DNA of 64,000 nt from Onchidella celtica. Taxonomy: Eukaryota; Mollusca; Gastropoda; Systellommatophora; Onchidiidae. The notes under the pieces were generated by a model that was not told the origin of the DNA, ran no database searches, and saw nothing but the letters and a program-made list of their open reading frames with translations. The DNA lies in NCBI GenBank assembly GCA_963931925.1, contig OZ007582.1, positions 19,183,818 to 19,247,817 on the forward strand, read 5' to 3'. A program made the position numbers and the translations under genes. Shown here in pieces: positions 1,286 through 54,587 of this stretch. Each line of letters begins with the position of its first letter. The stretch's first letter is position 1.

Positions 1286-1945
1286 TTGTAAAAGAAAAAA
1301 GATAAATGTTCATAGGTTGTCAGAATAAAGTCTTGTTCACAATAGTGTTGTACCAACAGGGTTACGGAACGAAGATTAATCTGAATTTAAAGTTCTGAAT
1401 CGGGAAGGCAGCCCCACTTCGATAAAGGCCATGCGAACATGAAAAAGTAGGGCGCTACACTACCACAAGGATGCCACGCTACCACAGCGAAATCGGGTTT
1501 TACCACATGTTGAAAAATGAAGATTAGTGAACACAACAGTCATGGGCAGAAAAAAATGGCCATCAAATTCGCACGAAAAAAGGTTAATATGTCATAAGGT
1601 CCATACATACCGTGAAAAAAAGCTTGCGGATGAGTTCTTTTGTTTCTCGGGGGCCTCAGCATAGTACTGTTGGCCCCCTAAAAAAAGCTTGCTTCTGGAT
1701 GAAAAGTTCAAAAATTTTGGCTCCGTAATGACAGCAGTTCCAACGTCACTTTCGTATCTGACATAGCCGAATCGCCACAAAGCGCGACCCAAAATAGTGC
1801 GATAACGGACAAATTCCTCCGCGTTGCGTAACTTCCGCCGACGGTGCGTATATGCGCGGACTGTCTATAAACCACCCGAAGTGCATCGTGAAACACTCAT
1901 TATCGTAGGGAGGCGCATCGACGTGCTGTTTGGTGCTAAGGGGAG
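1286..1945 (+). repeat. Dispersed repeat, copy 1
   Basis: About 330 bp from the beginning of this block are nearly identical to 5385-5722. The landmarks are the same in both: a run around GATAAATGTT, TCGGGAAGGCAGCCCCACTT, GGGCGCTACACTACCACAAG and GAAAAAAAGCTTG. A more diverged right half, ending near the CCGCCGACG motif, also matches. Copy 1 differs from copy 2 by a 65-bp insertion at 1628-1692, which is the micro-hairpin element plus one copy of its 13-bp target duplication. No coding capacity is visible. The family could be a non-autonomous transposon or a piece of a larger element. Confidence 0.75.
1628..1679 (-). mobile_element. Micro-hairpin element, copy A (full length)
   Basis: This 52-bp insertion is flanked by a perfect 13-bp direct repeat (AAAAAAAGCTTGC at 1615-1627 and 1680-1692). 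On the minus strand it begins with GGGGGCC and contains a stem GGGGCC/GGCCCC enclosing a second stem CAGTA/TGCTG (CAGCA in copies B and C). It then continues with CGAGAAACAAAAG and an ACTCATC-like end. The related repeat at 5385-5905 has only one copy of the flanking motif and no insert, so it serves as an empty site. The element has no coding capacity. It could be a retrotransposed small hairpin RNA, a minimal SINE, or a 5'-truncated LINE tail. Confidence 0.7.
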
Positions 1946-2051
1946 AGACAGGAGCTTATTCGCGTGGAACAGCAGACCAGAAAGGACGCTAGGCTAGCCT
2001 TGCATGCATCACTCCTTCCGGCGTCTTCCCTACTAATTCAGTGATTGTCAA

Positions 2052-2160
2052 AATTGGGCAAAAAGAAAAAGTTGTATGTAGCGAAGCCCTGCGTGAGAAA
2101 TAAAACTCAAACGATACAAAGCAAACTAAAGAGAAGACAGGAAAATACACAAATTTTCGG
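2052..2160 (+). repeat. Single copy of the fold-back repeat unit
   Basis: About 100 bp here match each arm of the large inverted repeat at 23918-24092, including AAAAAGTTGTATGTAGCGAA, GCGTGAGAAATAAAACTCAA and CTAAAGAGAAGACAG. The copy continues into a tail (GAAAATACACAAATTTT). That tail matches the reverse complement of the spacer of the fold-back copy, so the fold-back contains one complete unit plus one unit lacking the tail. Confidence 0.7.
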
Positions 2161-2384
2161 CTTTCACCTTTTTCAAGTGTAAAAAAAAAATAGAACTATA
2201 GTGCACTAAAGATTATGTGCACTGCAGCGGCTGTTCAACGAAGGTGGCTTAACTAAGCTACATGTAGTCGTCCGCATAAGAAAACCTCACAAAGCTGGTT
2301 TGGGAAATTTTACAGGAGAAGGAAAAAAAAAAAAAACTGATTTATTCCAAACCACAGGTCGCAGATTCTTGAAATTTTCTCACA

Positions 2385-2660
2385 AGGTGGTCTAGAGGCA
2401 AGGTGCTCGCCTCTCATGCCAAGGGTCCCGGGTTCTAAACCCGGGCAGTGCAGGCATGTTGGAAATTGGATTTTTCTCATATTTTCAAGTCCCTGGTCCT
2501 TTTGGGGGGTAGGATCGAGTACCTAGTCTTCTCGGATAAGGACGAAAAAATTCGGAGGGCCCGTGTGCACGTTGCGCACGTTAAAGATACCTTGGCAGTT
2601 GGAAATCGTAAAGAGCAGGCCGAAAGGCCGCTGCCCGGGCAAAATTGAAAATTGAAATTA
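2385..2660 (+). mobile_element. tRNA-derived SINE, copy 1
   Basis: The head is tRNA-like. It has an A-box-like GTCTAGAGGCAAGGTGCTCG near 2388 and a B-box-like GGGTTCTAAACCC near 2430. The body contains the blocks GGTAGGATCGAGTACCTAGT and GGATAAGGACGAAAAA and ends in an AAAATTGAAAATTGAAAT tail. The same body recurs at 14977-15245 (plus) and 31583-31936 (minus). The A and B boxes would form an internal RNA polymerase III promoter. The element has no coding capacity and would depend on a LINE for movement. Confidence 0.85.
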
Positions 2661-3510
2661 ATAGATTAAAATTTATCCATATCACCCCCCCCCCCCCCCC
2701 CGTCAGAATTTATTATTCATTATTAAATATATTTGTTATTAATAAATATTCAAATATTATTTGAGTTGTGTGTTGTGTGAAGTGATGTGAGTTGTGTGTT
2801 GTGTGAACTGATGTGAGTTGTGAACTGCTGTGAGTTGTGAACTGTTGTGAGTTGTGAACTGCGCCTAACAGACTGCGTTACAATTTGCTCTGAGATAGAG
2901 AGAGAGAGTGAGCGAGACAGGGAGAGAGAAAGAAGCAGTGCAGTATGTTGAGCGCTTCACAGGCAGCTCCATTCTGCTCTGTGGTTGACATGTTGTTTCT
3001 GTAAAGCGCATAGAGCATTTTAAATGGATATGCGCTATATAAATGCTATACATTATTATTATTATTAGTATACATTTGCTTTTACAACTTAATACACTGC
3101 CTGATGTCTCATCCTGATGATTATGATTACAATTATGTTTTAGGTATTTAGCAGGTTTGCTGACCCGAAATCCGCACGATAAAACCTCCTTATCCTTAAG
3201 GCGGTTTTATTGTGCGCATTTCCCTTCTCTCACTGGCCAGCAAACCTCTTTATCCAGGCATGTTTTCGTTTTGCCTTTGTTAAGGCTAGTTTTCGAGGGC
3301 AAATCAGGTGTGTACCAGACATGGATGAAGTTGTATAGCGACAGGAGGGATATAAAGTGAATTTAGTAAAAGTGGAAAAATATTTGGAGAAAATGGAAGA
3401 CGGGTAACCGCAATGAAGTAAACTAGAAGACGTTAAAGACGTTCCATATAGACACATAAAAACATTAAAAAACATACAATGCATGGGCAATCTATTATAT
3501 ATTTCAGTAA
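2661..3510. other. Non-coding spacer with GTTGTGTGAA-type tandem repeat
   Basis: After a poly-C run of about 16-17 bases near 2685-2701, the interval 2758-2865 is a degenerate tandem array of short units of the type GTGAGTTGTGAACTG. A purine-rich GA tract follows at 2898-2935. The rest shows no coding signal or recognisable element. Confidence 0.6.
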
Positions 3511-5384: not shown

Positions 5385-5905
5385 TTGTAAAAAAAAAGGA
5401 TAAATGTTAGTAAGTTGTCAGAATAAAGTCGTGTCCACAATACTGTGGTACCAACAGGATTACGGAACGAAGATTAATCTGATTTTAAAGTTCTGAATCG
5501 GGAAGGCAGCCCCACTTCGATAAAGGCCATGCGAACATGAAAAAGTAGGGCGCTACACTACCACAAGGATGCTACGCTACCACAGCGAAATCGGGTTTTA
5601 CCACATGTTGAAAAATGAAGATTAGTGAACACAACAGTCATGGGCAGAAAAAAATGGCCATCAAATTCGCACGAAAAAAGGTTAATATGTCATAAAAATC
5701 CATTCATATCGTGAAAAAAAGCTTGTTTCCAGGTGAAAAGTTCACAAACAGAAGCTCCGTATCGACAAAGTTGCAAAGTTACTTTCGTAACTCTCACAGC
5801 CGAATCGCAACTAAGCGCGACCCAAGATAGTGCGAAAATGGACAAATTCCTCCGCGTTGGGTAACTTTCGCCGACGTCACGTCTATGCTCGGACTCTCTA
5901 AGGAC
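5385..5905 (+). repeat. Dispersed repeat, copy 2 (empty site for the micro-hairpin)
   Basis: This block matches 1286-1945 closely over its first 330 bp and moderately afterwards. At the position where copy 1 holds the 52-bp micro-hairpin insertion, this copy reads straight through GAAAAAAAGCTTG with no insertion and no duplication. It therefore represents the pre-insertion state. Confidence 0.75.
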
Positions 5906-8117: not shown

Positions 8118-8734
8118 TTGATAGGGCAGATGGCAATATACCGTCACTCTGGCCTGGATATCGTGACACAGAGCATCCACCAGTATTGGTGTTCTTTGGT
8201 TTGGGTCTTTCACCCTAGTCAGTTGGGACTGCGAGGCTGTGGAGTAGCCTACAGGCAGCCGGTCAGGCAATATGACTGTCCCTCTGGCATCCTCCTGCAC
8301 CTGGATACATTTCCAGTCGTCTTGACCCTGTCTTGCCACTTGGATAAGTTGTGTCCAGGCGAGAGAGTGAGTCTGATGTTTGCGCAGCTCTTTCTCACTA
8401 AAAACAAATTCTTTGCGCCAGTCTTAACACTCACCTCGTCTTCTTTCATCTTTGTCTCGTCTTCTTTCCTCTCAAAATTCCAACGGCGATGGGCGAGTGC
8501 GGTGGCAGCAGGTTTGGATAGACTGGAAGCTGTTAGCACAGACCTACACGTTGGTGGCTGTGGGCTATGGTCGCTTCATCGTCGATTGAAGTGGAGGCGT
8601 GGGGAGGCAGCACCCACAGTAGCTGAGCAGCCTTATTTAAGGATAGCACTGCTCACCTCAACTGAGGAAGGGGCTAGAAAAGGTGCCCTAAAGAAAGCCC
8701 ACTTCACATCACCCTGACTGGTATACCGCGACCA

Positions 8735-9780
8735 GTGGGGATCCCTTTTTGCGGTCGAAACAAAAAGAAATTCAGCTTACTCAGGCTAGGAGCCTGGAAT
8801 ATACGCACACTACAGGACAACTCAAACAACCCGGAAAGACGCACTGCACTTATTGCCATTGAGCTCAGCAGGTACAACCTGGACATAGTGGCACTCAGTG
8901 AGACCAGACTCCCTGATAGTGGCCAACTCAAAGAGCTCAGTGGTGGATACACCTTCTTCTGGAAAGGCAAGGGTGCAGCCGAACCGAGACAGCATGGTGT
9001 TGGGTTTGCAATTAAAAATGACCTTGTCAGAAACTTGCAGTCCATGCCAATTGAAATAAATGACAGGCTAATGACACTCAGGATCCCAGTTGGGAAAAGC
9101 CAGTCAGCCACCCTCATTAGCGCATATGCGCCCACCATGACAAACCCAGATGAAGCCAAAGACAAGTTCTATTCTGATCTAGAATCTGTCATATGCTCTG
9201 TCCCGGCAGCTGATAAGCTTATTCTCTTGTGGGGACTTCAATGCTAGGGTTGGCTCCATATTCTCCGTGTGGCCAAATGTTTTGGGCCCTCATGGAGTTG
9301 GTTCATGCAATAACAATGGGTTGCGCTTACTTACTTTGTGCGCTGAATTTGGCCTGTTCATTACCAACACAAATTTTAGTCTCCCCGTGAGAAACAGAAC
9401 GTCATGGATGCATCCCCGCTCAAAGCATTGGCATCTCATAGACTATGTCATTGTGAGGAAGACTGACAGAAAGGATGTCCTTGTAACAAAGGCGATGTGT
9501 GGTGCCGAGTGTGGAACTGACCACAGACTCATTGTTTGCAAGCTCAGACTAACATTGAGGCGCAATAGACGCCCTCAAGGGAAAGCGCCACCTAAACGCC
9601 TAAATGTTTCAAAACTCTGCTCAGCTGAGAAACAGAGCGAGCTCTCATCAGAACTCTCCTCAAAATTGGATTGCGTGACTTTTGACCCTGAGAACATTGA
9701 ACAGAGCTGGACTGACCTAAATACGACTGTACACTCTTGCGCCAGCAGCACAGTTGGTTTTCCTGTCCGCAAGCACCAGT
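8735..9780 (+). pseudogene. LINE endonuclease domain, broken by two frameshifts
   Basis: This is the AP-endonuclease-like (EEP fold) domain that nicks target DNA for target-primed reverse transcription. The first half (8735-9247) shows LGAWNIRTL, VALSETRLP, GVGFAIKN and SAYAPT, which are the usual EEP blocks. An extra base near 9231-9237 destroys the following GDFN block and terminates the frame at 9247. The domain resumes in another frame at 9267 with NRTSW, the DYVIV block and the catalytic-histidine block GTDHRLIV, and continues to about 9780. There it shifts again into the RT frame. The copy is therefore inactive as it stands, unless the shifts are assembly errors. The preceding frame (8118-8717) ends in a segment typical of the region just upstream of such endonucleases and is probably the element's own N-terminal extension. 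Confidence 0.8.
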
Positions 9781-11968
9781 GCAGGACTGGTTCAATGATA
9801 ATGATAATGAAATCAAAGTGCTCATCAAAGAAAAAAATAGTCTCATCCAAGCTCACTGCAGTGACCCCTCTTCCACAGCAAAAGCTGATGCACTGCGTGC
9901 ATGTAAGGGTGTACTCCAGAAGAAGCTGAGGAAAATGAAAAATGACTGGCTTGAAGAGCGAGTAAGAGAAACTCAGAAATATGCCGACACAAACAACACT
10001 AGAAAGTTCTTTGAGAGCCTCCGAGCTGTGTTTGGACCATCCCGCTCTGGCACTACGCCACTTCTTGCCTCAGATGGTTCAACACGCATTGTTGAATTGA
10101 ATGCCATAATTCAGCGTTGGGCAGAACATTTCGGAGGTGTGCTAAATCGGCCATCAAATATAAATACTGAGTCCATTGACCGCCTCCCTCAGACTCCTAT
10201 TAATGCAGCTCTTGCCAAGCCATTCACAGCAAATGAGACCCGAACTGCCACAAATCAGATGTCCTTTAACAAATCACCAGGCGTGGATTCAATTCCTACT
10301 GAGGTGTATGCCTTCGGTGGAGAAAAGCTTATTAAAAGGTTGACCGAGTTGTTCAATCATATGTTGAAAGCAGGGAAGCTGCCACAGGACTTCAAAGATG
10401 CTTCAATCATCCATCTGTACAAAAACAAAGGGGACAGCCAAGTCTGTGACAACCATCGGGGAATCTCTCTACTTTCAATTGCTGGCAAAATATTGGCAAG
10501 AATGCTTCTGAATCGCCTTCTTGATCACCTCTCGTCAAATGACTTGCTTCCCGAGAGCCAATGTGGCTTTCGTAAAGAGAGGGGAACGGCGGATATGATT
10601 TTTGCTGCCAGACAGATTCAGGAAAAATGCATGGAACAAAATAAAGCGCTGTATATCACATTTGTTGACCTCACAAAAGCATTTGACACAGTGTGTCGTG
10701 AAGGCCTCTGGAAAATCTTGGCGAAGTTTGGGTGTCCACCCGAATTCATCACAATAGTGCGCCAGTTTCATGATGGCATGCAAGCTGCAGTCAAAAGCAA
10801 TGGCAGTGTTTCAGAGCCCTTTGCTGTCACAAATGGGGTAAAACAGGGTTGTGTCTTAGCCCCAACTCTGTTCAGCATCATGTTCTCTGCAATGCTACAA
10901 GAAGCCTTTAGCTCTCCTCCTCAAGGGGTAAGCATCAAGTACCGAACTGATGGCAGTCTATTCAACCTCAGGAGACTTCAGGCAAAAACCAAAACCAAAA
11001 GTACTCAAGTCTGTGACCTACTATTTGCTGATGATTGTGCACTTCTGGCACACGATGAGGATAGCATGCAAAACTGTGTTGATAAGTTCTCTAGTGCCTG
11101 TGACAACTTTGGCCTCACAATAAGCACAAAGAAGACGGAAGTGCTCCATCAGCCTACTCCAGACGACAAGTATCCTGTGACCCCAAATATCAAAGTCCAT
11201 GACAGTCTTCTGAAGGTGTCGGAGAACTTCACCTATCTTGGCAGTACACTGTCTTCCGCGGCTCGTGTTGATACTGAAATTCTCTCAAGAATCAGCAAAG
11301 CCAGCTCTGCATTTGGCAGGCTTCGAAAGAGAGTATGGGATGTTGCCGGCATTCGCACAGACACTAAGCTGAAAGTGTACAATGCTGTGGTCCGTCCCAC
11401 CCTACTCTATGGGGCTGAAACCTGGACAGTGTACCAATCGCATGCCAGAAAGCTAAATCACTTTCATCTGGCCTGCCTTAGAAAGATCCTAAGGATCAAA
11501 TGGCAGGATAAAATTCCAGACACTGAGGTCCTCAATCGTGCCAAGGAATTGAGCATCTTCTGCCACCTGAAAAAAATTCAGCTACGTTGGGCAGGACATG
11601 TTGTCAGAATGCCCGACTCCAGACTCCCTAAGCAAATCTTCTTCTCTGAGCTCTCCAATGGAACGAGGAATGTTGGGGCCCCAAAGAGACGTTACAAAGA
11701 CACTCTCAAGCAATCACTGAAGGCCTTTGCCATTGATGTGAGTGAGTGGGAAAAGCTCTCGCTTGATCGTGCAAATTGGAGGGCGGCCCTTACCAGAGGC
11801 AGCAAAGCATGGGAAGCTGACAGAGTCCAGCAGGCTATCAAAAAAAGAGAACGGCGCAAGAAAAGGCCCAGTGGTACTGAACCAACGGAGCACTCTTGTC
11901 ATTTATGCGGAAGGGTCTGTAGGGCAAAAATAGGACTTATCAGTCACATGAGAAGCCATAAGTCATGA
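9737..11968 (+). CDS. LINE reverse transcriptase with C-terminal zinc finger
   Basis: This open frame of 743 codons contains all core RT blocks. They include KSPGVDSIPTEVY, an IHLYKNKGD...NHRGISLLS block, SQCGFRKERGT, and motif [10 protein letters not shown] (Asp about residue 311). Motif B is [14 protein letters not shown], motif C is FADD (residues 430-433), and the thumb-region block is FTYLGSTLS. The block RWAGHVVRMPDSRLPKQ lies near the C-terminus, and a CHLC...H...H zinc finger occupies residues 721-741. The first ATG is not the biological start, because the first 10-15 codons overlap the end of the endonuclease in another frame. The catalytic aspartates are intact, so the RT itself looks undamaged while the upstream endonuclease is broken. 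Confidence 0.9.
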   Translation: MRQQHSWFSCPQAPVQDWFNDNDNEIKVLIKEKNSLIQAHCSDPSSTAKADALRACKGVLQKKLRKMKNDWLEERVRETQKYADTNNTRKFFESLRAVFGPSRSGTTPLLASDGSTRIVELNAIIQRWAEHFGGVLNRPSNINTESIDRLPQTPINAALAKPFTANETRTATNQMSFNKSPGVDSIPTEVYAFGGEKLIKRLTELFNHMLKAGKLPQDFKDASIIHLYKNKGDSQVCDNHRGISLLSIAGKILARMLLNRLLDHLSSNDLLPESQCGFRKERGTADMIFAARQIQEKCMEQNKALYITFVDLTKAFDTVCREGLWKILAKFGCPPEFITIVRQFHDGMQAAVKSNGSVSEPFAVTNGVKQGCVLAPTLFSIMFSAMLQEAFSSPPQGVSIKYRTDGSLFNLRRLQAKTKTKSTQVCDLLFADDCALLAHDEDSMQNCVDKFSSACDNFGLTISTKKTEVLHQPTPDDKYPVTPNIKVHDSLLKVSENFTYLGSTLSSAARVDTEILSRISKASSAFGRLRKRVWDVAGIRTDTKLKVYNAVVRPTLLYGAETWTVYQSHARKLNHFHLACLRKILRIKWQDKIPDTEVLNRAKELSIFCHLKKIQLRWAGHVVRMPDSRLPKQIFFSELSNGTRNVGAPKRRYKDTLKQSLKAFAIDVSEWEKLSLDRANWRAALTRGSKAWEADRVQQAIKKRERRKKRPSGTEPTEHSCHLCGRVCRAKIGLISHMRSHKS

Positions 11969-12122: not shown

Positions 12123-12538
12123 GTGGCTATTCTTACGGCAGTTTGTTATTCAACTTAATGCTGGGCCTACTTGGGGCGCTTTTTCGGTTGTTCCCACCCC
12201 AGTTAATTACTTACGTAGGCTATATTAGTCGATTGTCAGATTGATATGTAACGACGTGAGGGTCTAGTCAGTTTGTATCATCGAGGCCGTAGGCCGATGT
12301 TCGTCTGAGCAGTAGTCAGATTGATATATCAGGGAAAGCCGCCGGGGTAGCTATGTATTGTTTTCACTCGGACTGGAACGCATTCGGAAGTCCTTCCGTT
12401 AACTAAGGAGGATCAGTTGGGAAACTGATGCTGTAAGGTTGGCCTTTTCTGGCACACGATGTTCAAAATGTTACAGAGCCAATGTCTTTATGCCCTAGAT
12501 CTACGTCATCATTTTGCGACTGCCGTAAGAATAGCCAC
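12123..12538. mobile_element. Small inverted-repeat element (MITE), 416 bp
   Basis: The ends are a perfect 20-bp inverted repeat: GTGGCTATTCTTACGGCAGT at 12123-12142 and its reverse complement at 12519-12538. There is no open frame of note inside. It lies immediately beyond the ATT tail of the LINE, so it inserted beside or into the LINE's 3' end. Short flanking similarity (TTATATTTT on both sides) could include the target duplication, but the exact duplication is unclear. The superfamily is not assignable by eye. Confidence 0.75.
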
Positions 12539-21996: not shown

Positions 21997-22035
<39 letters not shown>

Positions 22036-22913: not shown

Positions 22914-23917
22914 TACTGTGCAGGGAAACTCTAATCACCACAGAACTCTGATGCTCAATAACTTATTATAAGACTTTATTTCACCATATATTTATATATG
23001 AATTTTTTCGTATTTAGATGTTACAGATCTGCCAACTGTCCCTTATTTTACAGGATTGTTCTGTATGAAGGGTTCCAGAGAGACATTAGAAATGGGTTTT
23101 TTTATACAAAAAAGAAATTCTCACCAGGTTTGAGGATGGAGGCGATTCCAGACAAATGCAAGAAAGAATGCACACAGTCATTTTATTTTGGAAGTAAGGC
23201 CTGCAATGTAATCATGAAAGGCTTTTTAACCGCTGAGCCTTAAATTCTACAAAATATCAGATTAGGTATAGAAAAATGTAAAGGTGTACGTGGGCACATT
23301 TAGAAGGTCTTGAAGTTTGCTATATTTTTAATACTTTCATAGGTTTTGAGCCACAATTGGGTTAAACAGAAGAGAGCATTCCAACATTTTGAGCCAAGAA
23401 AAGAATGACACATTTCCCTCTGGTAGAAATGAAAAGTATAACAGGACATTTCGTTCTGTGCTTCTGTACACAGTGGTGATGGAAACTCAACTTCAAAAAT
23501 CACATGTATATTCCCTGAGTCAGTGGGGCAACTAGTCCTTGTAACTACACAGATTATGTGATTGCCTTTATTGGGTATGGGTTTATTTGCCTCATGAATT
23601 GTCCCTTATTGAAGAGGTAATTTAGTTAACAGGTCTGATGTTAAGTTAGGATAATGATGATGATGAGTAGGAGGACAATTTTTTTAATGTAGAGACTGGA
23701 AATTTGGCAGAATTGTCAGTATACTACTTAAATACTGGTGGTAGATGGAACTCATTTATGCTATAACCAGATCTATTATGCTATAATAACCTACTGGCTT
23801 TTCATCAGTAAGAATTCTTTAAAAATTAATCATATATATTCTGACCTTCACAAAATATCATAAAAACCACAGAAAAACTGGGGTCGCAGCAGGGCTATAA
23901 GCAAAGTCAAAATTGGA
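22914..23917. other. Unassigned AT-rich spacer
   Basis: No domain, tRNA or transposon end was recognised. Open frames here are short and without recognisable motifs. Confidence 0.45.
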
Positions 23918-36032: not shown

Positions 36033-39000
36033 CTGAACGGACAAAAGCAATACATTTTACAGGTAACCCATAGTTACATTGTGATATGAACAAAAAGTAC
36101 ACATTAAATTGCCTGCAGTAGAATTAACTCCTTGCATGCTGACAAAGTGTTGTTACTATCATGAACGATCTATTGTATATCTCCTGTGAATTTGCCAATA
36201 TCTAATATGATCACAAATTTTGAGACATTTGATAAATCTTCCTTTAAACATTCCCATTCACCATTTGGAATAAACAAAATCATCAATTTCAAAAGTAACT
36301 AGGGCTATGAAAGTCATATCAGTACTGTTTCAGCATTCAAATTCTGCCAACTACACTCCAATGTGCCCTTAAAAATGCTGGTGGGGTCCTGCTAAGTGTG
36401 ACTCAAAATGCCGCATGATGACGTATCATTTTTAGGTAATACCAGCAAGTAGTTTCTCAATGCGGAAAACATCACTTTAGACAAGTTTTTGATCTTCAAA
36501 CGTGAACGTGGAAGAAATCTTATCTACTTCCCTCTTCCTGTAACAATCTTAAAGGATGAAACTAGGACTTTAAATGACACAGATTTACATGAAAATAGTG
36601 ACAGTGAAACATAAAGCACAACCCATGCCATTTAATTTTTTTTTCACAAAATAAATGATTAAATATTTATATATTATATGTTCAAAATTAGAGTTGTGTT
36701 CTTCCGCTTAGGCAGGAGGGGAGGAAACTGACTTCTGAAAATACATGAGACACTATTGGTAGGTACCGCAAACGCAAGGCCGATCGCAGTAGGAAATTTT
36801 GTACAGCGAGAAAAAAAAACTTGACAATTCGCCAAGTTTACAAGTGCATAACTCCGCTTCTATTCATTCAATTTGAATGAAATAAAAACATTATAAAAGA
36901 GCTTGATTAGTTTTATCTTGTGTGTAATTTTAGTTTTAGAATCTTTTGTAGAAGTATTTTTTTGCTTTTGTTTAAAAATGCATGTATAAGGCCTTTTACG
37001 CCAGCCGAGGCAGTGAAAACTCAACCACGCATTCTTTGATCGCGGACTGCTCGGTGGCGAAATCTCGTATAAAAATAGAATTGACACCACAAGAAAGGGC
37101 GAAAATTGACCTTTATTTGCATACTAGGCACCCCACAATTCCTCAAATATGGCGGGTTGGTTTGATCGAAAGAATGTAAATTCTGAGGAATTTCGCTAGA
37201 AAAATGGGCGATTTTGAACTTTTTTCACCGCATGCCATACTTTGAATGAAAGCTTTAGAAACCCAATATTTGATCACATATGTAAAATCAATATGTAATA
37301 TATCGCCACTAAGCAATTAGACCCAGAAGTCAGTGACTGTGTATGGCACGGTCTATGGTTTTTTACAATGGCGGAAGAGAGACCCGTCCAAGCATTGAAC
37401 ACACAGGTCAATGGTGGTGGCGATGCAGATCGGATTTCAAATGAGTTTCACTCTGCTCTTCAGATTTAGTAAACCTAATAGGTTAGTTTATATAAATTTT
37501 GACTGTTTATGATGATTATTCCCATTTGTTTCGTTGAAAAAAAAAATCATTCATCATCAATAATTCTCTTTAATCGGGGGGAGTAATGCATTGTCACGGA
37601 ACAGCCAAAGATCTATGCCAAACGCGAGGTGAAAGTGATTGTGAAAATAATATTAATAACAACGTGTTGTTAAATAATAATAATGACAGTGTGTGATAAA
37701 AATAATGAGTGGGGCCGGGAGTGTGAGGGAGAGAGAGTAAGTGTCAATTAGTATTATGTTATAAAAAAAATATATATCCTGTTTTTTTGTTTCTCGTTTG
37801 GTTGCGTTTTTTGTTTTTTTTTTTGCTTTCTTGTATCTACTCTATTGAATCGCATGGTTGTATTTATTGACTTGTTTCTAATAAAACTGGGGTATAAATA
37901 AAACTGAACTAAAAAGCATAATACTAGATCTAGATCTAGGATCTTTTTCTTGTTGTTGTTTTATCTGTAGGCCTATAGGTGTTTCAATTTTTGGTAACTT
38001 CATTTTCATGTCAATCAATTTATTTCTTAGATGGGTATTTCGATTATAAAACAATTTCGTTTATGGCGTGGTGTCAAACTATAACATGTCAAATAGCCTA
38101 CGGTCCGTATGGCTGATCTCTCGAATGATGCGCATACCCTAAACTATATTTTATTATTATTAAAAATTGTCACATTCCTTTAGTCAATTTATTGGTTATA
38201 TGTTGCACAATTATTGGGATTTAAAGTTTAATGGTAGATCTAGGTTAAATCATCAAATTTCTATCCCCAAGATTCTTATATAATTTCTATCAGTACACCT
38301 CTTAGAAAAGGAGTATGATTTTCATGCCCTGGCGAAGCCACTCAGAGCACTTGGATTAACACGACTACACCTGACTGGAGCTTGTGAATTTAAGGGTTCA
38401 CCTTTAATAAACATTTCAAAACATATGTTGTTATTGCTTATTTCAAATTGTATAATAAATCATCATAGCTGCTCCGTCAGACATCTATTAATGTCTTCAT
38501 TATTTTAGCTTTTCAATTTTCAGTAACTGAGCTTGTTTGTTTTCAGAAAAATATAATTCTTGTTTCAAGCATAAAATTTTTTAATTGTAATTTCTTTAAT
38601 GGAGGTCCTAGTTTTAAAATGGACTTAACGATGCTGTACATTTCTGTATTATTTAAACATGTAGAACTTTAAAATAGCTTTCCAATGATATATACATCTT
38701 CCTTCTGCTTAATCATTTCATTTTTTGTGAATTTTCTAAAAAGTTTAAATTTTCCTTGAAAATTTACAATTTTTAAACCACACCTTCTTTCATGTAATTT
38801 TAAAAATGTTCTTGATATGCTTGACATTACTTGTTTGTTTAAACATAAAGAGCTGGAAAAGACCTTTCCAATGATGTATTAATCACTCATCTAGCTCTAA
38901 CGGTTGATTTTCTATGTATTTTAAAAATTTTGTTATAAAAGGGGTTTTTCGACTTTTTTTCTACCAAAGTGTCAAAATGTGTCCCGAGCCGATTTTGTCG

Positions 39001-42000: not shown

Positions 42001-45000
42001 TTATAGAATGTTCTGCTAGACATACACAAGAGTGAGCAAATACAGTAGAGCCCAAATAAAGCAAACTTTGGTAATTCGAGTTTCTGCTAAATAGAGGTGA
42101 TTTTGAAATGAGGTTTTCTTTCCTTCTTTAGCTCTAATAAACATTTACTGCTAATTCGAGTTCCAACCGCACCAATTCTGATAAACAGAGCTGATCGAGG
42201 GCTCTCATCCTCAACCAACTCAATGTAAATTCTGATTTCCAGCCCCTAGCCGTGAAAACCAGTTTCCCCAAACCCCTGACACAGGCCTGTTCAACTTTAC
42301 TCTTCCCAGCGATCGAGGGGGAGGGTCGAGGTGCCAAAAATGATGCAATGGGTAGGCCGGTGAGATCTTTTTGTTTCTCGGGGGCCTCAGCACAGTGCTG
42401 TTGGCCCCGAACTGGGTAGGCTGCACAGCCTTCCTCTTAAGTGTCTCTCCCGACCAAGCGAGAAACATGCCGCCAAGTATGTGTGAGAGGATGAACGACT
42501 TTCTATTTTTAATGTGCTTTCATGGTAACTCTGGTGCGTGAGTAAGGGACGGCCACTCATAGTAGTTTATGGACACTTGGCAGAGTACCATTAATTGGAT
42601 TATTCCCCTTGTGATACTAGCGCGGGACCCGTTATTCACATCACGGTGAAAAGCGCGCATTTTGATTGGTCAGTTGGAAATGTTGACCACCGGGCTTCCA
42701 ACTCTTATATCATGGCTTTAAGTTTCTTACAACTCGCTCCTTCGTTGTTATCCACCGACAGAAAGACGGGAACCCGGACTCATTGTTGAGAGTAGGCAAT
42801 ACCCTATCGGTACAATATAGGTACTCATGATAACGTTTGTTATCAATGGAGATACGTCGTATTAATGGACGAAAGTATCCCGCACAAATTTGTCCAATGT
42901 TGTTAGTCCTGACACTTTGAAAATTTATATTAAAACTATTACCGGGTTTCTGGTATAAGTAGTCAGTTAGAATTGTAGCAGCAAGTTTCTACTTTATAAT
43001 GGTACCAATTTTGTTGTACTTTGATGCACATATCCTATTGAAATAATTAATAAGAGGGTCTCGGATTTAAAGTAAACCACGAGTTAGACGCATGTTATCC
43101 CCGATAAATCCAACCTGGGTCAAATTTATTCAATTATTGCTGGAGGGGACGTTAGAGTAATTTCTGCAGTTTACTGGGATACCTAATTGACTTTTGTGTG
43201 CACCCTTTTAACCGTACTGTAAATTCGATTGTGTTAGGACCCTAACCGGTTATGTTGTTCGGCTGGACTCAATGTCCGAGCCTTTCACTTGTCCAACACT
43301 GGACTACGTAATAGCCCTCTCGGACGTCCGCGCTGGCTCATAAAGATGATGCCAGTTCGAGTGGTCAGTAGACTCCATCAAAGACGCCGCAACGATAGGA
43401 AGCACAAGTGGACCTTGCAGTACAATAGATCGGCGGCGGCCTGCCGTGGCGCGCCTCGCCCAAAACATGGCCTAGTCCAGTTGCGCCAGTAGCAGGGAGA
43501 CTTTGGCTTATGGCTGGTTGGGCTTCTTTTTCTTGGTAGGGTTTTTCCTATGCCTTTTTGGTAGTGATACCTTTGTTAGGCTTTTTGAATAAATAAGATT
43601 GCCAGCAGAACCCTGTGTTTGTTAATCCTGTGTATCCTTAAGGGAGTTACTATTGAACCCACGCAGTAACCACATTAGCCACTCGTAGTTCATACAACAT
43701 ATGGTAGTGGTATGGGTGGGGGTACATTGTGGTAACGCCTCGGTATCAGCCAACAATGCGGTATGCGAGACGGTACTCGCATTATGGTGAATTTATCAAT
43801 TGCTGACGTAACCACGACAGGTACAGCCAAGATACGGTAAACCGTAGCACATAAATTACACACAGTTGAATCACCAGCCGTAGTGTGCCCACCATGCTCA
43901 CATAGAGCCACTTGTGTAATGCTCGATAAGCACCACATGACTGTATTCAAAAGTAAAAAGTTATGGTAAGGCCCTGGAGGAACAAAGACCTTACTTCACG
44001 AGGTTCTTATCACTTCAGTAAGCAAATAACCCCCCCCCCCCACATACACACACAATGTACGTCGCTGCAGTGTTTACAAATTCACCACAATACACTCGAT
44101 GGGGAGGGGGGGGGGACGACTACGGCATTGTTACACAATACTGCGTAATAGTAATTCCACGCCACTGATAGCAAGGTAGAATAGCGCAGTAGGCCTACGG
44201 TCTTGCATTTGAACATCGTACAAGGGGGGAGTGTCTTTATCGATTGATGACGTCACACACAATACATGCGGCCGAGATAAAGACAGTTTGCTGACCAGAG
44301 CTACTAAGTCTAAGCCATTCAATTTTGCTCTTTTGTTTTACCACTACGGTAGGGTCACTTCTAAAGAAAAAAATAATCGTAAGATCTCATGACTCATACA
44401 CTGGTTCCTTTGCGTTCTTTTGTGTGTTTATATGTGGGGAGGGGGTCTGCAAGGGGATGTAATTACACGTATGGTATGGGGCAGACTGCAAAAGACAGTG
44501 CAATCCTAATATCTCGACATCAGTGGGATGGTCTGACTTGCGTCGAGTAAAGAAAAAGTCCAAATAGCAGATTAGTGGTGGAAGAGAGACAAAAAAAAAA
44601 GGGAAGGGGGTGGGGGGGGGGGGGTAGATTAAACACCACCGTTATGGAAAATGTCCAATAAATTACGCAATTATGTCCCTTTTTCTTTTAATTATCGGCA
44701 TCCTGTCACCCGTTTCTCCAACATCATTGTTGGATGGAGCAGTTGCATGGCAAAGATTTGCCGATATCTGTGAAATGCTATAGCTATACATAAATGCCCA
44801 GTGTTTTACTATTTCTTTTTAACCTCGACCTGTTTCTTCAGAAGAAATGATAATACCGATACACACACAGTACGGCAGTTAACCAAGAGATCTAGGTCAA
44901 GGACTAGTATCAACGGGGCACGAATGTTTTGTGAAAAAACAAAAAAAAACACAGTCTGTAGTACTTTATACTTTTCTTTTTTACTGCCCTGAGCTTATGC

Positions 45001-48000
45001 ATGGCACACCACACTCGCGTTACTGAAGCCAAGGGTCATCCTCTGTATCCACACACCCCGCAAAAATAAATAGAGATCTGATTATATGCGGGGAGCTGCG
45101 TGGGCATTTTCGGTAGCACAGTTGTAGATCTAATGCACTTGTGCTCTGGTCGAGGAGAAATGTGTCGATACAAGAGGAAAGAATAGAACGAGACGTCGAG
45201 TTACGGGGAAATATTTAGTTTAAAGAAGGAACAGGTTGGGACTTTAAAATTGTGTCGAGTTACCCAGAATGTCGAGATAAGTGGATTGGACTGTAATGGT
45301 TATTTCTCTGCTCAGAGGTAAACCGAACTTTGGTAAATCGAAGTAGAATCCATTTCCCGGCGACTTCAAATTATACAGACTCCACTGTACTTTTTCATGT
45401 ACAAAACACCAAACATTATTGTCGTGTTTTTTCTCTGTGCCTATAAAAGACTTAGGTTTTCATTGTTATTGCTGTTTTTTTTTGCAAAGAGAAAAACCTT
45501 GGAGCATGCTGTCATTGACACACCTACCAAGTAAATAACCACTTCAATATAGGGGATACCCCAGTGGGCATATAATATTGTACCAAGACCCTTCAACTCA
45601 TTGAGGCAATCTGAATCTGTCAGCAATGCTTTCCATAGGAAGAACCCAAAGAAACACTGTAACATACTTCACAAATTACAAAATACACTACATTGGTATA
45701 ATGTGCACATTATCTCATCACCATTCCCTAAAACTGTAGTAATAATCCCCCCCCCCCCCAAAAAAAAACGCCAGTCGGCGCTGCACTGTGGCGATGGCGT
45801 GCCTGCTCCAGTTGTAACTGGCTGCAATGACACAAAGGCAAATTTCCCAAATGGGCTGAAAGGTATACAAATACAAATAAGTATACAAATAATAGGTACT
45901 CCTGATTGGTGTTTGCCACTGCCGCCAGCACACAAAATTGACCCTCCCGGTGATAAATGGTCTCGCGTGTCTGATCAAAGAAGCGTAACGGCCCTGAACA
46001 TGTATAATCTAAAGCAGAAGAGGCTGTCCTTCACAATGGTATAAATATCTCCTCAATCTCATTGCAATAAATGAGTAAATTTTGAAAATTTGGTCATTTT
46101 TCATTTAAAAAACAAGCTTAGAGTGAGTTTTATGGCATCCTAATATGTGTTTTTCAGGACAGAATATTCATTTTTTACATAAAATACCAAAATTTCACTA
46201 CGATTCATTGAACGGATCAAACCCACAATCTAATCGGAGGTCAGATGTTCATTTTTTTTTATCAATCTTATAAAAATCATTGGGTTTGTTAAACTTACTT
46301 TGTTTATATTTTTTGTTAGTTTATAAATAAAAATTACTGCAAATGGTTAATACTGACAATAGTGACATAGGTAGAAAGCTTCCTCTCACTTGTAAAAGAC
46401 ACAGCATCTTCCTTTTTGTCCATAATTATTTACCAAATGGTTGTCATACATTATAATATTATTTCTCATATAAACATTTATTTCATTTATTTTCACACAA
46501 AATTGCAGTAAGAATTTTTGTGTGCGTCCATTTTCTTTGGTTTTATAAACTTAAGTAAATATTGATTGCTGGTGACCTACAACTAGTACAAGTTGTCAAA
46601 CTCTTAAAAAAGTTTTTGTTACATGATGATATTCAAATGCATTTGAAACAGTTCATGAATGTTTAAGGCAATCAGTTTGAGTGGTCTTTTCTTTTTGTAG
46701 GCAAATTCATCAATTTTTTAATAGTTTTTTGAAAGTGGCCAAATTTTTACTTTTTTGTCTCCCTTTATAAATTTTGTCAATCATCACCAAAAGCGCCCCA
46801 CTTAAGTCTGTAAATGGTGAACCCATCACAGATAAAAATGAACAACTGAATAGGTGGGTAGAGCATTACTCTCTGTTGTATTCAACTGAGAAAAATATTC
46901 CACCAGATTTTGAGGAACACCTCCAAAAACTGCCAATAATGGCCGAACTTGACGCTGAACCTTCCTTAGTCGAGCTTTCCAATGCAATCGACCACCTGTC
47001 TGCTGGAAAAGCCACAGGAAGTGACAACATTCCTGCAGAGGTATTAAAAGACCTAAAAGGCCCACTATTACCACACCTGTATAATCTGTTACTGCAGTGT
47101 TGGAAAGAAGGCGTGATACCACATGATATGAGAGACGCCAAAATTGTCACACTTTACAAGAACAAAGGAGACAAAGGCGACTGCAACAACTATCGAGGCA
47201 TATCCCTCCTCAGCATTACTGGAAAGGCTTTTGCTCGCGTCATCCTCTGCCGCCTTCAACAACTGGCGGAAAAAGTCTTACCAGAAACACAATGTGGCTT
47301 TCGAAGCAAACGATCAACTATTGACATGATATTTGCACTTCGGCAAATCCAAGAAAAATGTAAAGAACAAAACAGGCCGCTTATAACATGCTTTGTGGAC
47401 CTAACAAAGGCTTTCGACACCGTAAGCCGATCTGGCCTGTATGCAGTCCTTAAATCCATAGGCTGTCCACCAACATTGCTAAAACTTATTGCATCCTTCC
47501 ACACTGACATGAGGGCATGTGTCAACTTTGAGGGCTGCACATCCAATTCATTTGCTGTAAACAGCGGTGTGAAGCAGGGATGTGTTCTTGCTCCTACCTT
47601 ATTTGGTATATATTTTGCAGCCCTACTCAAGAATGCCTTTGGTCAATGTTCAGGTGGAGTACTTATTAACACCAGAGTGGACGGCTCCATTTTTAATGTT
47701 GCCAGACTAAAAGCAAAATCTCGTACAGAGCATATTATGTTACAAGAGCTCCTCTTCGCAGATGATGCTGCAATCGTGGCCCACGATGAAACCACGCTCC
47801 AGGCTCTCATCAATAGCCTTGCCAAAGCCTGTGACAAATTCATGCTAAAGATCAGTGTTTCAAAAACTGTAGTTTTGACACAAGGCTTGAGAAACCCCAA
47901 CCCAATCATGCTGAATGGCTCTCCTCTGGAGCAAGTGGGAAAATTCTGCTACCTAGGCTCAACCATCAGTGGTAGCACAGACATAACAACTGAAATAAAT

Positions 48001-51000
48001 GCCAGAATAGGAAAGGCGGCCACAGCTTTTGGCAAACTCTCAAAAAGGGTGTGGAACAATAGCAAGCTGACCATCAAAACAAAGGTACTCGTGTACCAAA
48101 CTTGCGTCCTAAGCACCCTGCTGTATGGCTCAGAGACATGGACCACCTACTCCAAACATGAAAGATCCCTCAACTCCTTCCACCTGCGCTGCCTACGCAA
48201 ATTCTCAAGATCAAGTGGCAAGACAGGATCTCAAATATCGAAGTTCTGAGCCGAGCCAACATTCCATCAACTCAGGCTCTCCTAGGCAAAAAAAGACTGC
48301 GGTGGCTTGGACATCTCCACCGTATGGAAAATGATCGCATCCCCAGACAAATTCTCTACGGGGAACTTGCTACTGGCAACCGACCCAGAGGTAGGCCACA
48401 TCTGCGATTCAAAGACACTTGTACGGTCACGATGAAAGCATTCAACATCGACCCCAATGAATGGGAGAACCTTGCAAATGATCGAAGCAGATGGAGACAA
48501 AAATTGCGCAGTGGCACGCTCGCAATAGACTTCAAGGCAAAAGAAACATACCTGACAAAACGACAGAGGCGGAATGAAAACACTCGCCAAAGTGAACCCA
48601 AAAGACTGACCTGCAATCACTGCCATCGCACTCTCGGGTCAAACATTGGTAGAATAAGCCACGAGAGAAGCTGTCAGTCAAAGTGAAAGTGAATATTCTA
48701 GCTGCTAAGACCGTCTGTAAAGATGCTAAAGGCCATATATAAATTTTGTAATATTTGCTTCGAAGCCAGTTTCGTGCTAATAATAAAAACTGTATTTGTA
48801 ATGTTTAAATTTTCTCGATAAAACTGACTTTGCTATTTGTTATTATATAAAGACTGTTTTCTCACAGCTTGAGCATCCTGTAATGTTTCTTTCCTAAATT
48901 ACAGCTCACCGAAAATAGCTTATGGTATACCGCAAAAAGAGGTGAAATCACTGAAAATTAAAAATTGCATAACTTTGTAAATTTTGAATATACGGTATTA
49001 AATTTGGTACCAAACTCTTCAGAAAAACAGTTACTATTCAAAGAAATAACTTGTGTTTAGGAATCTCCATTCTGAAAAACCAGTTTGGAGTAAATAGTAA
49101 CCAGTGTTGGCTACTTTTCAAGAAAAGCAAAAAACTGTTTTATTTTAGCAAGACTGATCTAATTACGATGCATTTTTTTAAAGTTTGCTATTCGATTATT
49201 TTTTGGCTGAGGAGTCTATAACCAAAATCATTTCATGCTGCTTTAAATATATCTGAAAACGTATAAAATTGTTTTTTTTTTATTTTTTGAGTCACTACAG
49301 TCTCAGGCAATGGTGACAATCTTGTGCTTTACTGGACTGGTTTTCTTCCTAAAATCTGGCAGGAATTTCACTTTCATAAAAAAAGAATTATCTCTCACAT
49401 CTTTCCCAACACCCTCAATACAGGACAGTCTCATAAAATAAGCAACATTCAGCAGGTCTACGATAAAGTCTTGAATTACAAATTATATTTCTCCAATTCA
49501 ACCCCCAACCTCCCTCACAAAGACTTTGATTGCTATCAAAATGCTCTCGCTTGCTGAAACCAACTTTACAGCACTGCGCTTCTTACTGAACATCACCATA
49601 CTGATTCAATGGCTTCAGTTGCAAAAAGGACATATGAACTTGTGAATATGAATTAGTAATATGTGCAGCCACGGCAATTTCTGAAGTGGAGCGCTGCGTT
49701 TTACAGTCTAACATTCTTAGCTTTTCCTGTCTGTAGTTAGTAAAACTGTTTCACCTTCAGGCGTTTAACGCGTTCAGTAAGTTCACAAACTTCTCTTGCA
49801 AGAGTTAGCTAGTCTTCAATATTTACTTTTGGAACACAGCATTCAGTCAGTCAGATCTGGATGCTGATGACAACCTGATACTGAATCCAACAACGTTATG
49901 ATAAAGCTTACCTTGGTAATGTTATTTGGATCAGGCATTACACACAGCCCTGGGGGTGGGTCTGAATAAATTGCAAGTATGTCACTGTGAAGGGAAGAAA
50001 CAAACCTGTTAAGATCATCAAGGTACATGACAGGAGATATTTGATCGTCATCGTGACACCCCTAAGATTAATCCATTCACTACTCCTTTCTTGTAAGTCA
50101 ATGTCATCATGTACTCTGTTCATTCAGGTGCTGTATGTTTATCATGTTATAAACTTTATAATAGAGAGTTGTAAAAGCACCCATGCATCCGAATTCCACA
50201 ACACTTATATGTAATGTAGTATTAACCCTCACCCTGCGAGGGGCGGCAATTGTCGGTATTTACTCGCAAGCGCTCACGATCACGCCACACGGAAGGCAAA
50301 AGTCGGGAAAGTCAAGCTGACCGCGCCACGTGCAAGCCGTATTTTCACGCATCAGGTCACTGACTTTTTGAGACGTAACCACCGTGTTATTGTTCACTGT
50401 ATCTCTTCTAAATCAAACGCATTGTGACATGGACATGTTAACCAGTGAACCACTGGTCGGAATCACAAAGACTAAGCTTTCAAAGGCTCTCCCCACACTT
50501 TCAAAAGATGTAACAACGACATACCAACTGTTGCTCAACAAATTTGCAATATTATCTCATTTTCTCACAAGCTGACCACCATCTGGAGTTGTCTGTATCT
50601 AAGAACCAATCAGAAACAAGCTCTGAAATAATCTTTGCCCCAAATGCCCACATTGGTTTATTAACTGTGTCAATCAGGATGAAACCATTTGTGTAGGGCT
50701 TGGGAGGGCGTGACTAGTTATCATGCTTCGTTCTCACGAAAACTACAGCTGTCAGTTTGGAATCATAAGTCAGATCATTGGTTAGAGACTGACAGACTAA
50801 GATTTTGCTGGTTAATTCATTATCAAGTGTGATAAGGCATAGCAGCGAATGTTTTCATACCGATCAATAAAAACCGAACCACATGGACAGCGTTTGTGGT
50901 CATCGCATAGTGGCACGGGTCAGTGACCCCAGATAAGATTCTCCGTGAGTAAAGTCACTGACCGTGCAGCGGGCTTTACGGGTAACGCGCGGGGTATGGG

Positions 51001-53424: not shown

Positions 53425-53590
53425 CAGTGGCGTAGCGTGGGTTGCCAGCACCCGGGCCGCGAGACGAGGTCCTTTTTTTCTCGGGGGCCTCAGCGTAGTG
53501 CTGTTGGCCCCAACCAGCACCCGGGCCGCGGGCGAGGCAAGTACATGATGTATTGCGCCCCCTAACCAGTGGATCGTTAACACGTAGGCC
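53425..53590 (+). repeat. CAGTGGCGTAGC-type repeat, interrupted by a micro-hairpin
   Basis: The block CAGTGGCGTAGCGTGG...GCCAGCACCCGGGCC...TTGCGCCCCC is typical of a transposon terminus found widely in invertebrates. It is interrupted by micro-hairpin copy C with a 17-bp duplication. The far end of this repeat was not determined. Confidence 0.5.
53462..53513 (-). mobile_element. Micro-hairpin element, copy C (full length)
   Basis: A perfect 17-bp duplication CCAGCACCCGGGCCGCG (53445-53461 and 53514-53530) flanks a 52-bp core. On the minus strand the core starts TTGGGGCC, folds into the GGGGCC/GGCCCC plus CAGCA/CGCTG double stem (one G-T type pair), and continues GAGAAAAAAAGGACCTCGTC. This is the strongest target-site evidence of the five copies. 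Confidence 0.78.
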
Positions 53591-54269
53591 TAGCAAACGT
53601 TTATTTCCCCAGACATGTTGAAAAACTGTGTAGAATATTCGAACAGTGGGGGATTTTCTGTGTGTGTTGGGGGGAGGGGTGGGGCGTTATACATTAATTT
53701 ATTATTACTAATTTCTTTTTGCGCTTTTAAGAATCTTCCCGGGCTAAGGCCTCTAGACCAGTTTTGTGTGACGTGGAATTTATGTATCGACGGTCACTGA
53801 CGGCAGAATTTTTTTTTTCACACCTGTCATATAATTTCGAGGTACTTTTTCTTTCCCTCCAATCACAATAAGTAGGGCCTGTAGCTAAATCTTGTTTTTT
53901 GTTTTTTTGTTTTGTTACTTTATCGTTATCTGGTAATGCGCTGACTATTTGCTTATACATGTAATGCTATAAGACTTTCAGATCAGCCGCCACTAGTTAA
54001 ATTTTGCACTTCGCGAGACGCATAAAATGACGGTTCGAAATTATTGGCTTTCGGTTATCGTCCTTTGGATCTCAGAAATGTCAGTTTCATAATAGAAGAC
54101 ACTAATGAGAATATGAATTTGTAAAAATCCATGACGCTCCATGAAACATTAGCATATTATATCCGCAGTTATCCTAAAGATTATTTGTTCATGCTGGCTT
54201 CACTCCTCCCACTGTTCTGTAGGCCTATGTGATACATAATTAATACACGAACTTGTAGAATGTTCAACC

Positions 54270-54304
54270 GTTTGAGGTCCTTTGGTTTCTCGGGGGCCTC
54301 AGCC
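54270..54304 (-). mobile_element. Micro-hairpin element, copy D (5'-truncated)
   Basis: The flanks AATGTTCAACC (54259-54269) and AATGTTCAGCC (54305-54315) agree at 10 of 11 positions. On the minus strand only the 3' part of the unit is present, beginning GGCTGAGGCCCCCGAGAAAC and ending GGACCTC. The 5' half of the hairpin is missing, while the 3' end matches the full copies. Confidence 0.62.
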
Positions 54305-54542
54305 AATGTTCAGCCTGTAAAATGCTCAACCTGTTATGTTCGTCTGTTTTATAAGTATTTTTGTTGTGTTGTTCACATGTGAGGCACAACGTTGATCTCT
54401 CTTGATTGGTGACAAATGGCGGGCGATGATAATTCCTTCCAGCTAGACGTATTAACTCTATACTTGCGTGTTGATTATTATCAGAATAATTCTTCATTTA
54501 CAACCCTATTTTTTCACTGTAATCTTCGTGATGGCAGATGAG

Positions 54543-54581
54543 GCGATGAGTTCTTTTGTTTCTCGGGGGCCTCAGCATAGT
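54543..54581 (-). mobile_element. Micro-hairpin element, copy E (5'-truncated)
   Basis: On the minus strand the core begins ACTATGCTGAGGCCCCCGAG and ends AAGAACTCATCG. It is truncated in the hairpin loop. The only flanking match is GATGAG (54537-54542 and 54582-54587), which is short enough to be chance. Confidence 0.55.
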
Positions 54582-54587
54582 GATGAG

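What the first reader, a model, noticed from the sequence alone, without database searches (positions are those of the whole stretch)
1615..54587. A ~52-bp hairpin unit present five times as independent insertions
Five copies (1628-1679, 42358-42412, 53462-53513, 54270-54304, 54543-54581) share a core that, read on the minus strand, forms GGGGCC/GGCCCC enclosing CAGCA/TGCTG with a three-base loop, then GAGAAACAAAAG and a CTCATC-like end. Copies A, B, C and D have direct flanking repeats of 13, 9, 17 and 11 bp. Three copies share the same 5' end and two are cut inside the hairpin, while the 3' end is constant. Variable-length target duplications with 5' truncation are signs of LINE-driven target-primed reverse transcription. 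A discrete retrotransposed RNA of about 50 nt would be smaller than ordinary SINEs and has no tRNA, 7SL or 5S head that I can see. Alternatives: the 3' tail of an unseen LINE, or a processed structural RNA.
Basis: partly seen in the sequence, partly recalled or inferred. Interest (0 to 1): 0.88.

Follow-up and report, generated by a model that had tools for sequence, protein, structure and literature searches.

The report
Tiny retroposed hairpin RNA, five insertions
A sequence of only about 50 bases that folds into a strong hairpin has been copied into five separate places in this stretch of animal-type DNA, in most cases leaving the flanking duplication typical of RNA-copying mobile elements, so a very small RNA seems to have been spreading through the genome.

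Summary
Five copies were found in the window, all on one strand. Flanking direct repeats are 13, 9, 17, 11 (one mismatch) and 6 bp; repeats as good occur at 0, 7, 0, 11 and 181 of 4000 random window sites, so four convince and copy E's is weak. Copy A is demonstrably an insertion: a paralogous repeat at 5385-5900 has the empty site, shorter by 65 bp, which is the insert plus one duplication. Variable-length duplications point to LINE-type target-primed reverse transcription. One end is constant; the other stops at the hairpin base in three copies and inside the hairpin in two. No Rfam family or tRNA matched, and neither LINE in the window has a similar tail.

Best reading: a discrete RNA of about 50 nt, copied in trans by a LINE, with its 3' end near CTCATC. 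The strand is not proved; read the other way it would be a 3'-truncated 'tailless' retropseudogene of an snRNA-like RNA. The genome-wide test (ends, longer copies, copy number) could not be run because the genome search did not complete (13 tries). A new variant of a known kind, unusually small; not found in print by the searches made.

The parts
1628..1679 (-). Copy A, 52 bp, full hairpin unit
   Evidence: empty site
1615..1627 (.). Copy A left target duplication AAAAAAAGCTTGC
   Evidence: 0 of 4000 random sites as good
1680..1692 (.). Copy A right target duplication AAAAAAAGCTTGC
5385..5900 (+). Paralogue of the repeat that hosts copy A; carries the empty site (single AAAAAAAGCTTG, last base of the 13 is T instead of C)
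42358..42412 (-). Copy B, 55 bp, full hairpin unit
42349..42357 (.). Copy B left target duplication TGGGTAGGC
   Evidence: 7 of 4000
42413..42421 (.). Copy B right target duplication TGGGTAGGC
53462..53513 (-). Copy C, 52 bp, full hairpin unit
53445..53461 (.). Copy C left target duplication CCAGCACCCGGGCCGCG
   Evidence: 0 of 4000
53514..53530 (.). Copy C right target duplication, 17 of 17 identical
54270..54304 (-). Copy D, 35 bp, cut inside the hairpin
54259..54269 (.). Copy D left target duplication AATGTTCAACC
   Evidence: one mismatch; 11 of 4000
54305..54315 (.). Copy D right target duplication AATGTTCAGCC
54543..54581 (-). Copy E, 39 bp, cut in the hairpin loop
54537..54542 (.). Copy E left target duplication GATGAG (weak; an alternative 6-bp repeat GTGATG exists at 54528-54533 and 54580-54585)
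   Evidence: 181 of 4000
54582..54587 (.). Copy E right target duplication GATGAG (weak)
8678..11968 (+). LINE with endonuclease (8678-9244) and reverse transcriptase (9716-11965) in separate frames; the kind of element that could supply the machinery, no link to the unit shown
46778..48737 (+). 5'-truncated LINE (reverse transcriptase only) flanked by the 12-bp duplication TATAAATTTTGT; shows target-primed insertion in this genome; its tail does not resemble the unit

Best explanation
The unit is a non-autonomous retroposon made from a discrete structured RNA of about 50 nt, copied into the genome in trans by an APE-type LINE through target-primed reverse transcription. Read on the minus strand the RNA starts at a GC-rich hairpin (GGGGCC-AA-CAGCACTATGCTG-A-GGCCCC). 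A weak second stem (GAG/CTC) follows, and the RNA ends near CTCATC, perhaps CTCATC(C)GC. The LINE endonuclease nicks the target, the exposed 3' end primes on the 3' end of the RNA (2-3 bases of the target, GC or CGC, match that end in A, B and C), and the copy runs to the 5' end or drops out within the hairpin (D, E). A few unmatched bases are added at full-length 5' ends. A staggered second nick gives the 9-17 bp duplications. Shown here: insertion (directly for A), duplications, shared ends, predicted structure. Inferred: the helper LINE, the strand, the priming step, and that the RNA exists as a discrete molecule.
For: Five copies at unrelated sites. Empty site for A, 65 bp shorter, i.e. 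insert plus one duplication. Variable-length duplications, with 0, 7, 0, 11 and 181 of 4000 random sites as good, unlike the fixed-length duplications of DNA transposons and LTR elements. In 5 of 5 copies the CTCATC-side end lies 4-5 nt beyond CTC, while the other end varies. 3 of 3 untruncated copies stop at the hairpin base plus extra bases AG, GTTC and TT (the G in A lengthens its stem by one pair). A, B and C share GC, GC and CGC with the target at the CTCATC-side junction, and E carries a GC there that its target lacks, if GATGAG is its duplication. LINE endonuclease and reverse transcriptase frames, and a 5'-truncated LINE with a 12-bp duplication, are in the same window. No Rfam or tRNA match.
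Against: Only five copies, so end positions and junction matches are thin evidence. The strand is not proved: both strands fold equally well, and 3'-truncated tailless retropseudogenes would look the same read on the other strand. No compensatory base change supports the hairpin. The variable arm suggests several source sequences, although 52 bp shows no promoter that I can see. No transcript data. No copy outside the window was found, in collections that hold mostly viral and prokaryotic DNA. An empty site was found for one copy only, and copy E's duplication is weak.
Confidence: 0.5

Rival explanations
1. The RNA is read on the plus strand: a short arm, a U-rich single-stranded stretch (TTTTGTTTCTC) and a 3' terminal hairpin, as in a small Sm-class snRNA such as U7. 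The copies are tailless retropseudogenes whose 5' end is constant and whose 3' end is truncated in the hairpin by internal priming.
For: Tailless retropseudogenes in mammals are truncated in loops and single-stranded regions, lack tails, have target duplications, and their target is complementary to the terminal 2-18 nt of the RNA (PMC5322556, passages including part of the abstract). D and E end beside or in the loop. U7 is about 60 nt with an extensive 3' stem-loop not conserved in sequence (PMC7026596, start of abstract and passages). The plus strand folds about as well. From recall only: sea urchin U7 has a GUUUCUCUAG-like Sm site.
Against: No U7 or other snRNA hit in Rfam even at E 10 for copies A, C and B (D and E were not tested that way, and the U7 model may miss invertebrate U7). 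The Sm consensus given in PMC7026596, AAUUUGUCU, fits 5 of 9 by my eye. The arm that a functional U7 should conserve is the most variable part. No target complementarity is seen at the truncated end of D; in E one base, or three if the alternative repeat GTGATG is its duplication.
Confidence: 0.25
2. The copies are the extreme 3' ends of an unseen LINE or longer SINE; almost all copies are truncated because the reverse transcriptase fails at the hairpin.
For: A constant end and a truncated other end is ordinary LINE behaviour; stringent LINEs recognise 3' hairpins (recall). The variable arm could be drift between LINE subfamily tails.
Against: A polymerase coming from the 3' side should stall before or inside the hairpin, not just after finishing it, yet 3 of 3 longer copies end 2-4 nt beyond its far base. 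None of the five copies found in 64 kb extends further. The tail of the 46.8-48.7 kb LINE does not resemble the unit, nor by eye does the region after the stop of the 8.7-12.0 kb LINE.
Confidence: 0.17
3. Short DNA elements inserted by a DNA transposase, or filler DNA from break repair.
For: The unit contains an imperfect palindrome.
Against: Duplications of 6-17 bp are not of fixed length; the palindrome is at one end only, so there are no terminal inverted repeats; break-repair filler is not expected to give precise duplications (established knowledge), and the site of A is precise.
Confidence: 0.05

Closest known systems
Tailless retropseudogenes of small RNAs (mammals, L1-driven; PMC5322556, passages seen)
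   Same: Short RNA without a poly(A) tail, target duplications, an end in or beside a loop, short complementarity between RNA end and target
   Different: Those come from known RNAs (tRNAs, spliceosomal RNAs, 5S, 7SK and others) and are 3'-truncated; here no known RNA matches and the truncated end is more likely the 5' end
SINEs (tRNA, 7SL, 5S or snRNA headed)
   Same: Non-autonomous, dispersed, several sequence variants, target duplications, LINE-type insertion
   Different: Only 52-55 bp at full length; no internal promoter head found; no LINE-derived tail identified
WEIRD-LINE chimeras of Magnaporthe grisea (PMC2104539, passages seen)
   Same: Copies of a non-coding RNA of unknown function inserted by LINE machinery, flanked by 10-20 bp direct repeats
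   Different: WEIRD is 1.1 kb and no solo copies were found; here the unit is about 50 bp, solo and not fused to a LINE
5'-truncated LINE tails
   Same: Constant 3' end and truncated 5' end
   Different: No longer copy in the window; sharp end at the hairpin base in three copies

Membership tests
LINE-mobilised retroposon (target-primed reverse transcription) | Flanking target duplications of variable length | tested here: met
   13, 9, 17, 11 and 6 bp; 0, 7, 0, 11 and 181 of 4000 random sites as good; four convincing, E weak
LINE-mobilised retroposon (target-primed reverse transcription) | Empty site with one copy of the target | tested here: met
   1 of 5 copies (A), paralogue 5385-5900; no empty site available for the other four
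LINE-mobilised retroposon (target-primed reverse transcription) | One constant and one truncated end | tested here: met
   One end 4-5 nt beyond CTC in 5 of 5; other end at hairpin base in 3 and inside hairpin in 2
SINE | Pol III-type head (tRNA, 7SL, 5S) with internal promoter | tested here: not met
   No Rfam family at gathering in the window, only chance-level hits at E up to 10 for A and C and none for B, no tRNA gene. These tools also missed the window's own tRNA-like repeats, so a very degenerate head is not excluded, but 52-55 bp is too short for a whole one
SINE | 3' tail shared with a LINE of the same genome | tested here: inconclusive
   No resemblance to the tail of the 46.8-48.7 kb LINE or, by eye, to the region after the 8.7-12.0 kb LINE; other LINEs of the genome not available
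U7 snRNA retropseudogene | Match to the Rfam U7 covariance model | tested here: not met
   No U7 hit at E up to 10 in A, C, B; D and E not run
U7 snRNA retropseudogene | Sm site AAUUUGUCU followed by a 3' stem-loop | tested here: inconclusive
   3' stem-loop present on the plus strand; UUUGUUUCU matches 5 of 9 of the consensus in PMC7026596 (compared by eye)
Tailless (3'-truncated) retropseudogene | Constant end is the 5' end of the source RNA | not testable with these tools
   Strand of the source RNA unknown; needs small-RNA data or the source gene
LINE 3' tail | Longer copies extend into LINE sequence | tested here: inconclusive
   None of the five copies in the window is longer; the genome could not be searched (13 genome search tries unanswered)

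The most novel reading that the evidence does not exclude
A self-sustaining retroposon of about 50 nt, among the smallest retroposed units, in which a hairpin is nearly all that is needed: it protects the RNA and sets a sharp 5' end (for example against a 5'-3' exonuclease), a short 3' tail is recognised by a LINE, and the copies themselves serve as sources by read-through transcription, which would explain the several arm variants without any internal promoter.
Probability: 0.2. Interest if true: 0.85.

Novelty: new variant of a known kind. Interest (0 to 1): 0.6.

Why it matters
If the unit is a discrete RNA of about 50 nt, it lowers the size known to me for what LINE machinery spreads in several copies, and asks how such an RNA is transcribed with no room for an internal promoter. 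Five copies in 64 kb would mean many thousands per genome if the density were general (an extrapolation, not measured). The sharp hairpin-side end also makes a testable case for RNA structure, rather than a poly(A) or LINE-like tail, deciding what gets copied.

Tried and rejected
DNA transposon or MITE: rejected on unequal duplication lengths and no terminal inverted repeats. Known structured RNA: Rfam gave nothing at gathering for the window, three chance-level hits for A (SNORD115 E 0.42 with 61 of 82 model positions skipped, mir-711 E 0.8, SCARNA8 E 5.4), one for C (Ms_AS-4 E 3.5) and none for B. D and E were not run at that threshold. U7 snRNA was considered seriously for the plus strand and not supported. 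LINE tail: the 46.8-48.7 kb LINE ends in AAAGGCCA before its duplication, unlike the unit. Base-pair covariation: 97.1% of 34 cells paired, but no pair changed on both sides and the shuffled control is the same, so the alignment does not show conservation of structure beyond sequence. A tail-only copy at 37774-37798 (11.1 bits) was judged low-complexity chance.

Further copies were sought in IMG/VR (three patterns, 0 hits), in GTDB genome contigs (two patterns, 0 hits), and in the protein collection with two reading frames through the unit (no candidate sharing three words). These hold mostly viral and prokaryotic DNA, and the tool says near records may be left out, so the absence says little. 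The LINE protein search scored 8000 candidates and listed the best 120 of 3598; the best is 94% identical, and the only organism names given in the list are Spirometra, Leptobrachium and Branchiostoma, which does not name the host. LINE and SINE probes in IMG/VR gave no related locus. In print: exact words of the core on both strands, 0 papers; 'smallest SINE', 'shortest SINE' and similar, 3 papers, by title and abstract start two on unrelated subjects and one on SINEUP RNAs, none opened; other listings, of which most papers were not opened; sea urchin U7 motif words, 0 papers; U7 pseudogene phrases, 0 papers. [quoted passage not shown] that the window is molluscan is only a guess. A survey of U7 snRNAs that I recalled was not held.
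Full report
OBSERVATION. Five copies of the unit were found in the window. A scan for the 18-base core with up to 3 mismatches gives five exact matches, all on the + strand, against a mean of 0.01 in 100 shuffles. An HMM and a covariance model searched without filters find the same five at 34-59 and 39-75 bits. The next HMM candidate has 5.8 bits; the next covariance-model candidate, 12.6 bits, is copy B read on the other strand, followed by 11.1 bits in a T-rich stretch. Copies reduced to the arm alone would escape both. The window is animal-like: one LINE with endonuclease and reverse transcriptase in separate frames and one truncated LINE with reverse transcriptase only, an LTR element with 99% identical LTRs, and tRNA-like dispersed repeats. 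The species is not known to me.

INSERTION. Copies A-E are flanked by direct repeats of 13, 9, 17, 11 (one mismatch) and 6 bp. At 4000 random window sites with the same geometry, a repeat as good was seen 0, 7, 0, 11 and 181 times, so E alone would not convince; E also has an alternative 6-bp repeat, GTGATG. Copy A lies in a repeat that has a paralogue at 5385-5900. There the sequence reads CGTGAAAAAAAGCTTGTTTCC with a single target; the last of the 13 bases is T instead of C. The filled site is longer by 65 bp, which is the 52-bp insert plus one 13-bp duplication. That is direct proof of insertion with target duplication for one copy of five; no empty site was available for the other four. 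D sits in a small tandem repeat, so its duplication should be read with that in mind. Three of the five copies lie within 1.08 kb (simulated P 0.008, a test chosen after seeing the cluster), and all five share one orientation (1 in 16 by chance). Neither is explained.

ANATOMY. Read on the minus strand: GGGGCC-AA-CAGYACTRYGCTG-A-GGCCCC, then about CGAGAAACAAAAGRAYCTCATC. A, B and C fold at -21.1 to -21.2 kcal/mol on the minus strand (z -3.2 to -3.6) and -20.2 to -24.6 on the plus strand (z -2.5 to -3.9), so folding does not choose the strand. Pair counts show 97.1% of cells paired but no compensatory change, the same as the shuffled control, so structure conservation beyond sequence is not shown. 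In the five copies the core has 0 of 18 variable columns and the arm 10 of 12 when counted without gaps (Fisher P 2e-6); indels inflate this, and in the gapped alignment 8 of those 12 arm positions vary. A and E have the same arm, C and D resemble each other, B differs. Since A and C have perfect duplications, these differences most likely existed in the source RNAs, so there was probably more than one source.

ENDS. On the CTCATC side the insert ends 4-5 nt after CTC in 5 of 5 copies. On the hairpin side A, B and C end 2-4 nt beyond GGGGCC with different bases (AG, GTTC, TT); D ends beside and E inside the loop. At the CTCATC-side junction A, B and C share GC, GC and CGC with the target, and E carries a GC that is absent from its target if GATGAG is its duplication, as if the RNA ended in CTCATC(C)GC and paired with the target. 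In the minus reading the duplications begin with G or C in 5 of 5 copies. These are small-number hints for the minus strand as the RNA.

MECHANISM. Variable-length duplications, one constant and one variable end, and a few unmatched bases at full-length ends fit target-primed reverse transcription by a LINE; passages of the review PMC2881922 describe second nicks that give duplications and non-templated bases that may aid the template jump. The window itself shows such activity: a 5'-truncated LINE at 46778-48737 with a 12-bp duplication. Which LINE copies the unit is unknown; the tail of that LINE does not resemble it.

DISCRETE RNA OR LINE TAIL. A reverse transcriptase entering from the 3' side would be expected to stall before or inside the hairpin. 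It has no evident reason to stop just after completing it, yet 3 of 3 longer copies do, and none of five goes further. This favours an RNA that begins at the hairpin. Five copies cannot exclude a LINE tail.

THE OTHER STRAND. On the plus strand the unit looks like a small Sm-class RNA: a short arm, a U-rich stretch and a terminal stem-loop. Mammalian tailless retropseudogenes are truncated in loops and prime by short complementarity to the target (PMC5322556, passages). I considered U7 snRNA. U7 is about 60 nt with a 3' stem-loop of unconserved sequence (PMC7026596, passages), and my recollection of the sea urchin U7 Sm site resembles the unit. But no Rfam U7 match appears at E 10 in A, C or B, the published Sm consensus fits 5 of 9, and the arm that a U7 should conserve is the most variable part. 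I put this at 0.25.

WHAT COULD NOT BE DONE. Public scans used here are viral and prokaryotic and gave 0 hits; two protein searches through the unit gave no candidate.

VERDICT. Real insertions of a very short hairpin unit by what is most likely a LINE-type process, proved for A, well supported for B, C and D, likely for E. Most likely a discrete RNA of about 50 nt. New variant of a known kind, with its strand, source gene and helper open.

On re-reading the calls I mended these: the second LINE shows reverse transcriptase only; the 12.6-bit candidate is copy B's other strand; the arm count depends on gaps; the LINE-tail membership row is inconclusive, not failed; E has an alternative repeat. 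None changes the odds given.

Noticed in passing
53462-54581: Three of the five copies lie within 1.08 kb (simulated P 0.008, post hoc) and all five have the same orientation; no explanation found.
   Followed up: partly
46778-48737: 5'-truncated LINE with perfect 12-bp target duplication TATAAATTTTGT at 46766-46777 and 48738-48749.
   Followed up: yes
58743-63303: LTR retrotransposon with LTRs 99% identical; by eye a 5-bp flanking repeat GAGTT at 58738-58742 and 63304-63308, so probably a recent insertion.
   Followed up: partly
12123-12538: Element with inverted ends GTGGCTATTCTTACGGCAGT inserted in the region after the stop of the 8.7-12.0 kb LINE; looks like a MITE.
   Followed up: no
2385-2650, 14976-15234, 31749-31940 (-): Three copies of a SINE-like repeat with a tRNA-like head, missed by ARAGORN and by Rfam gathering thresholds.
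   Followed up: partly
23902-24108: Palindromic element, arms 95 nt and 93% complementary, related to 2047-2144.
   Followed up: no
33964-34096: Tandem array, 4 copies of a 33-bp unit, a multiple of three; possibly coding.
   Followed up: no
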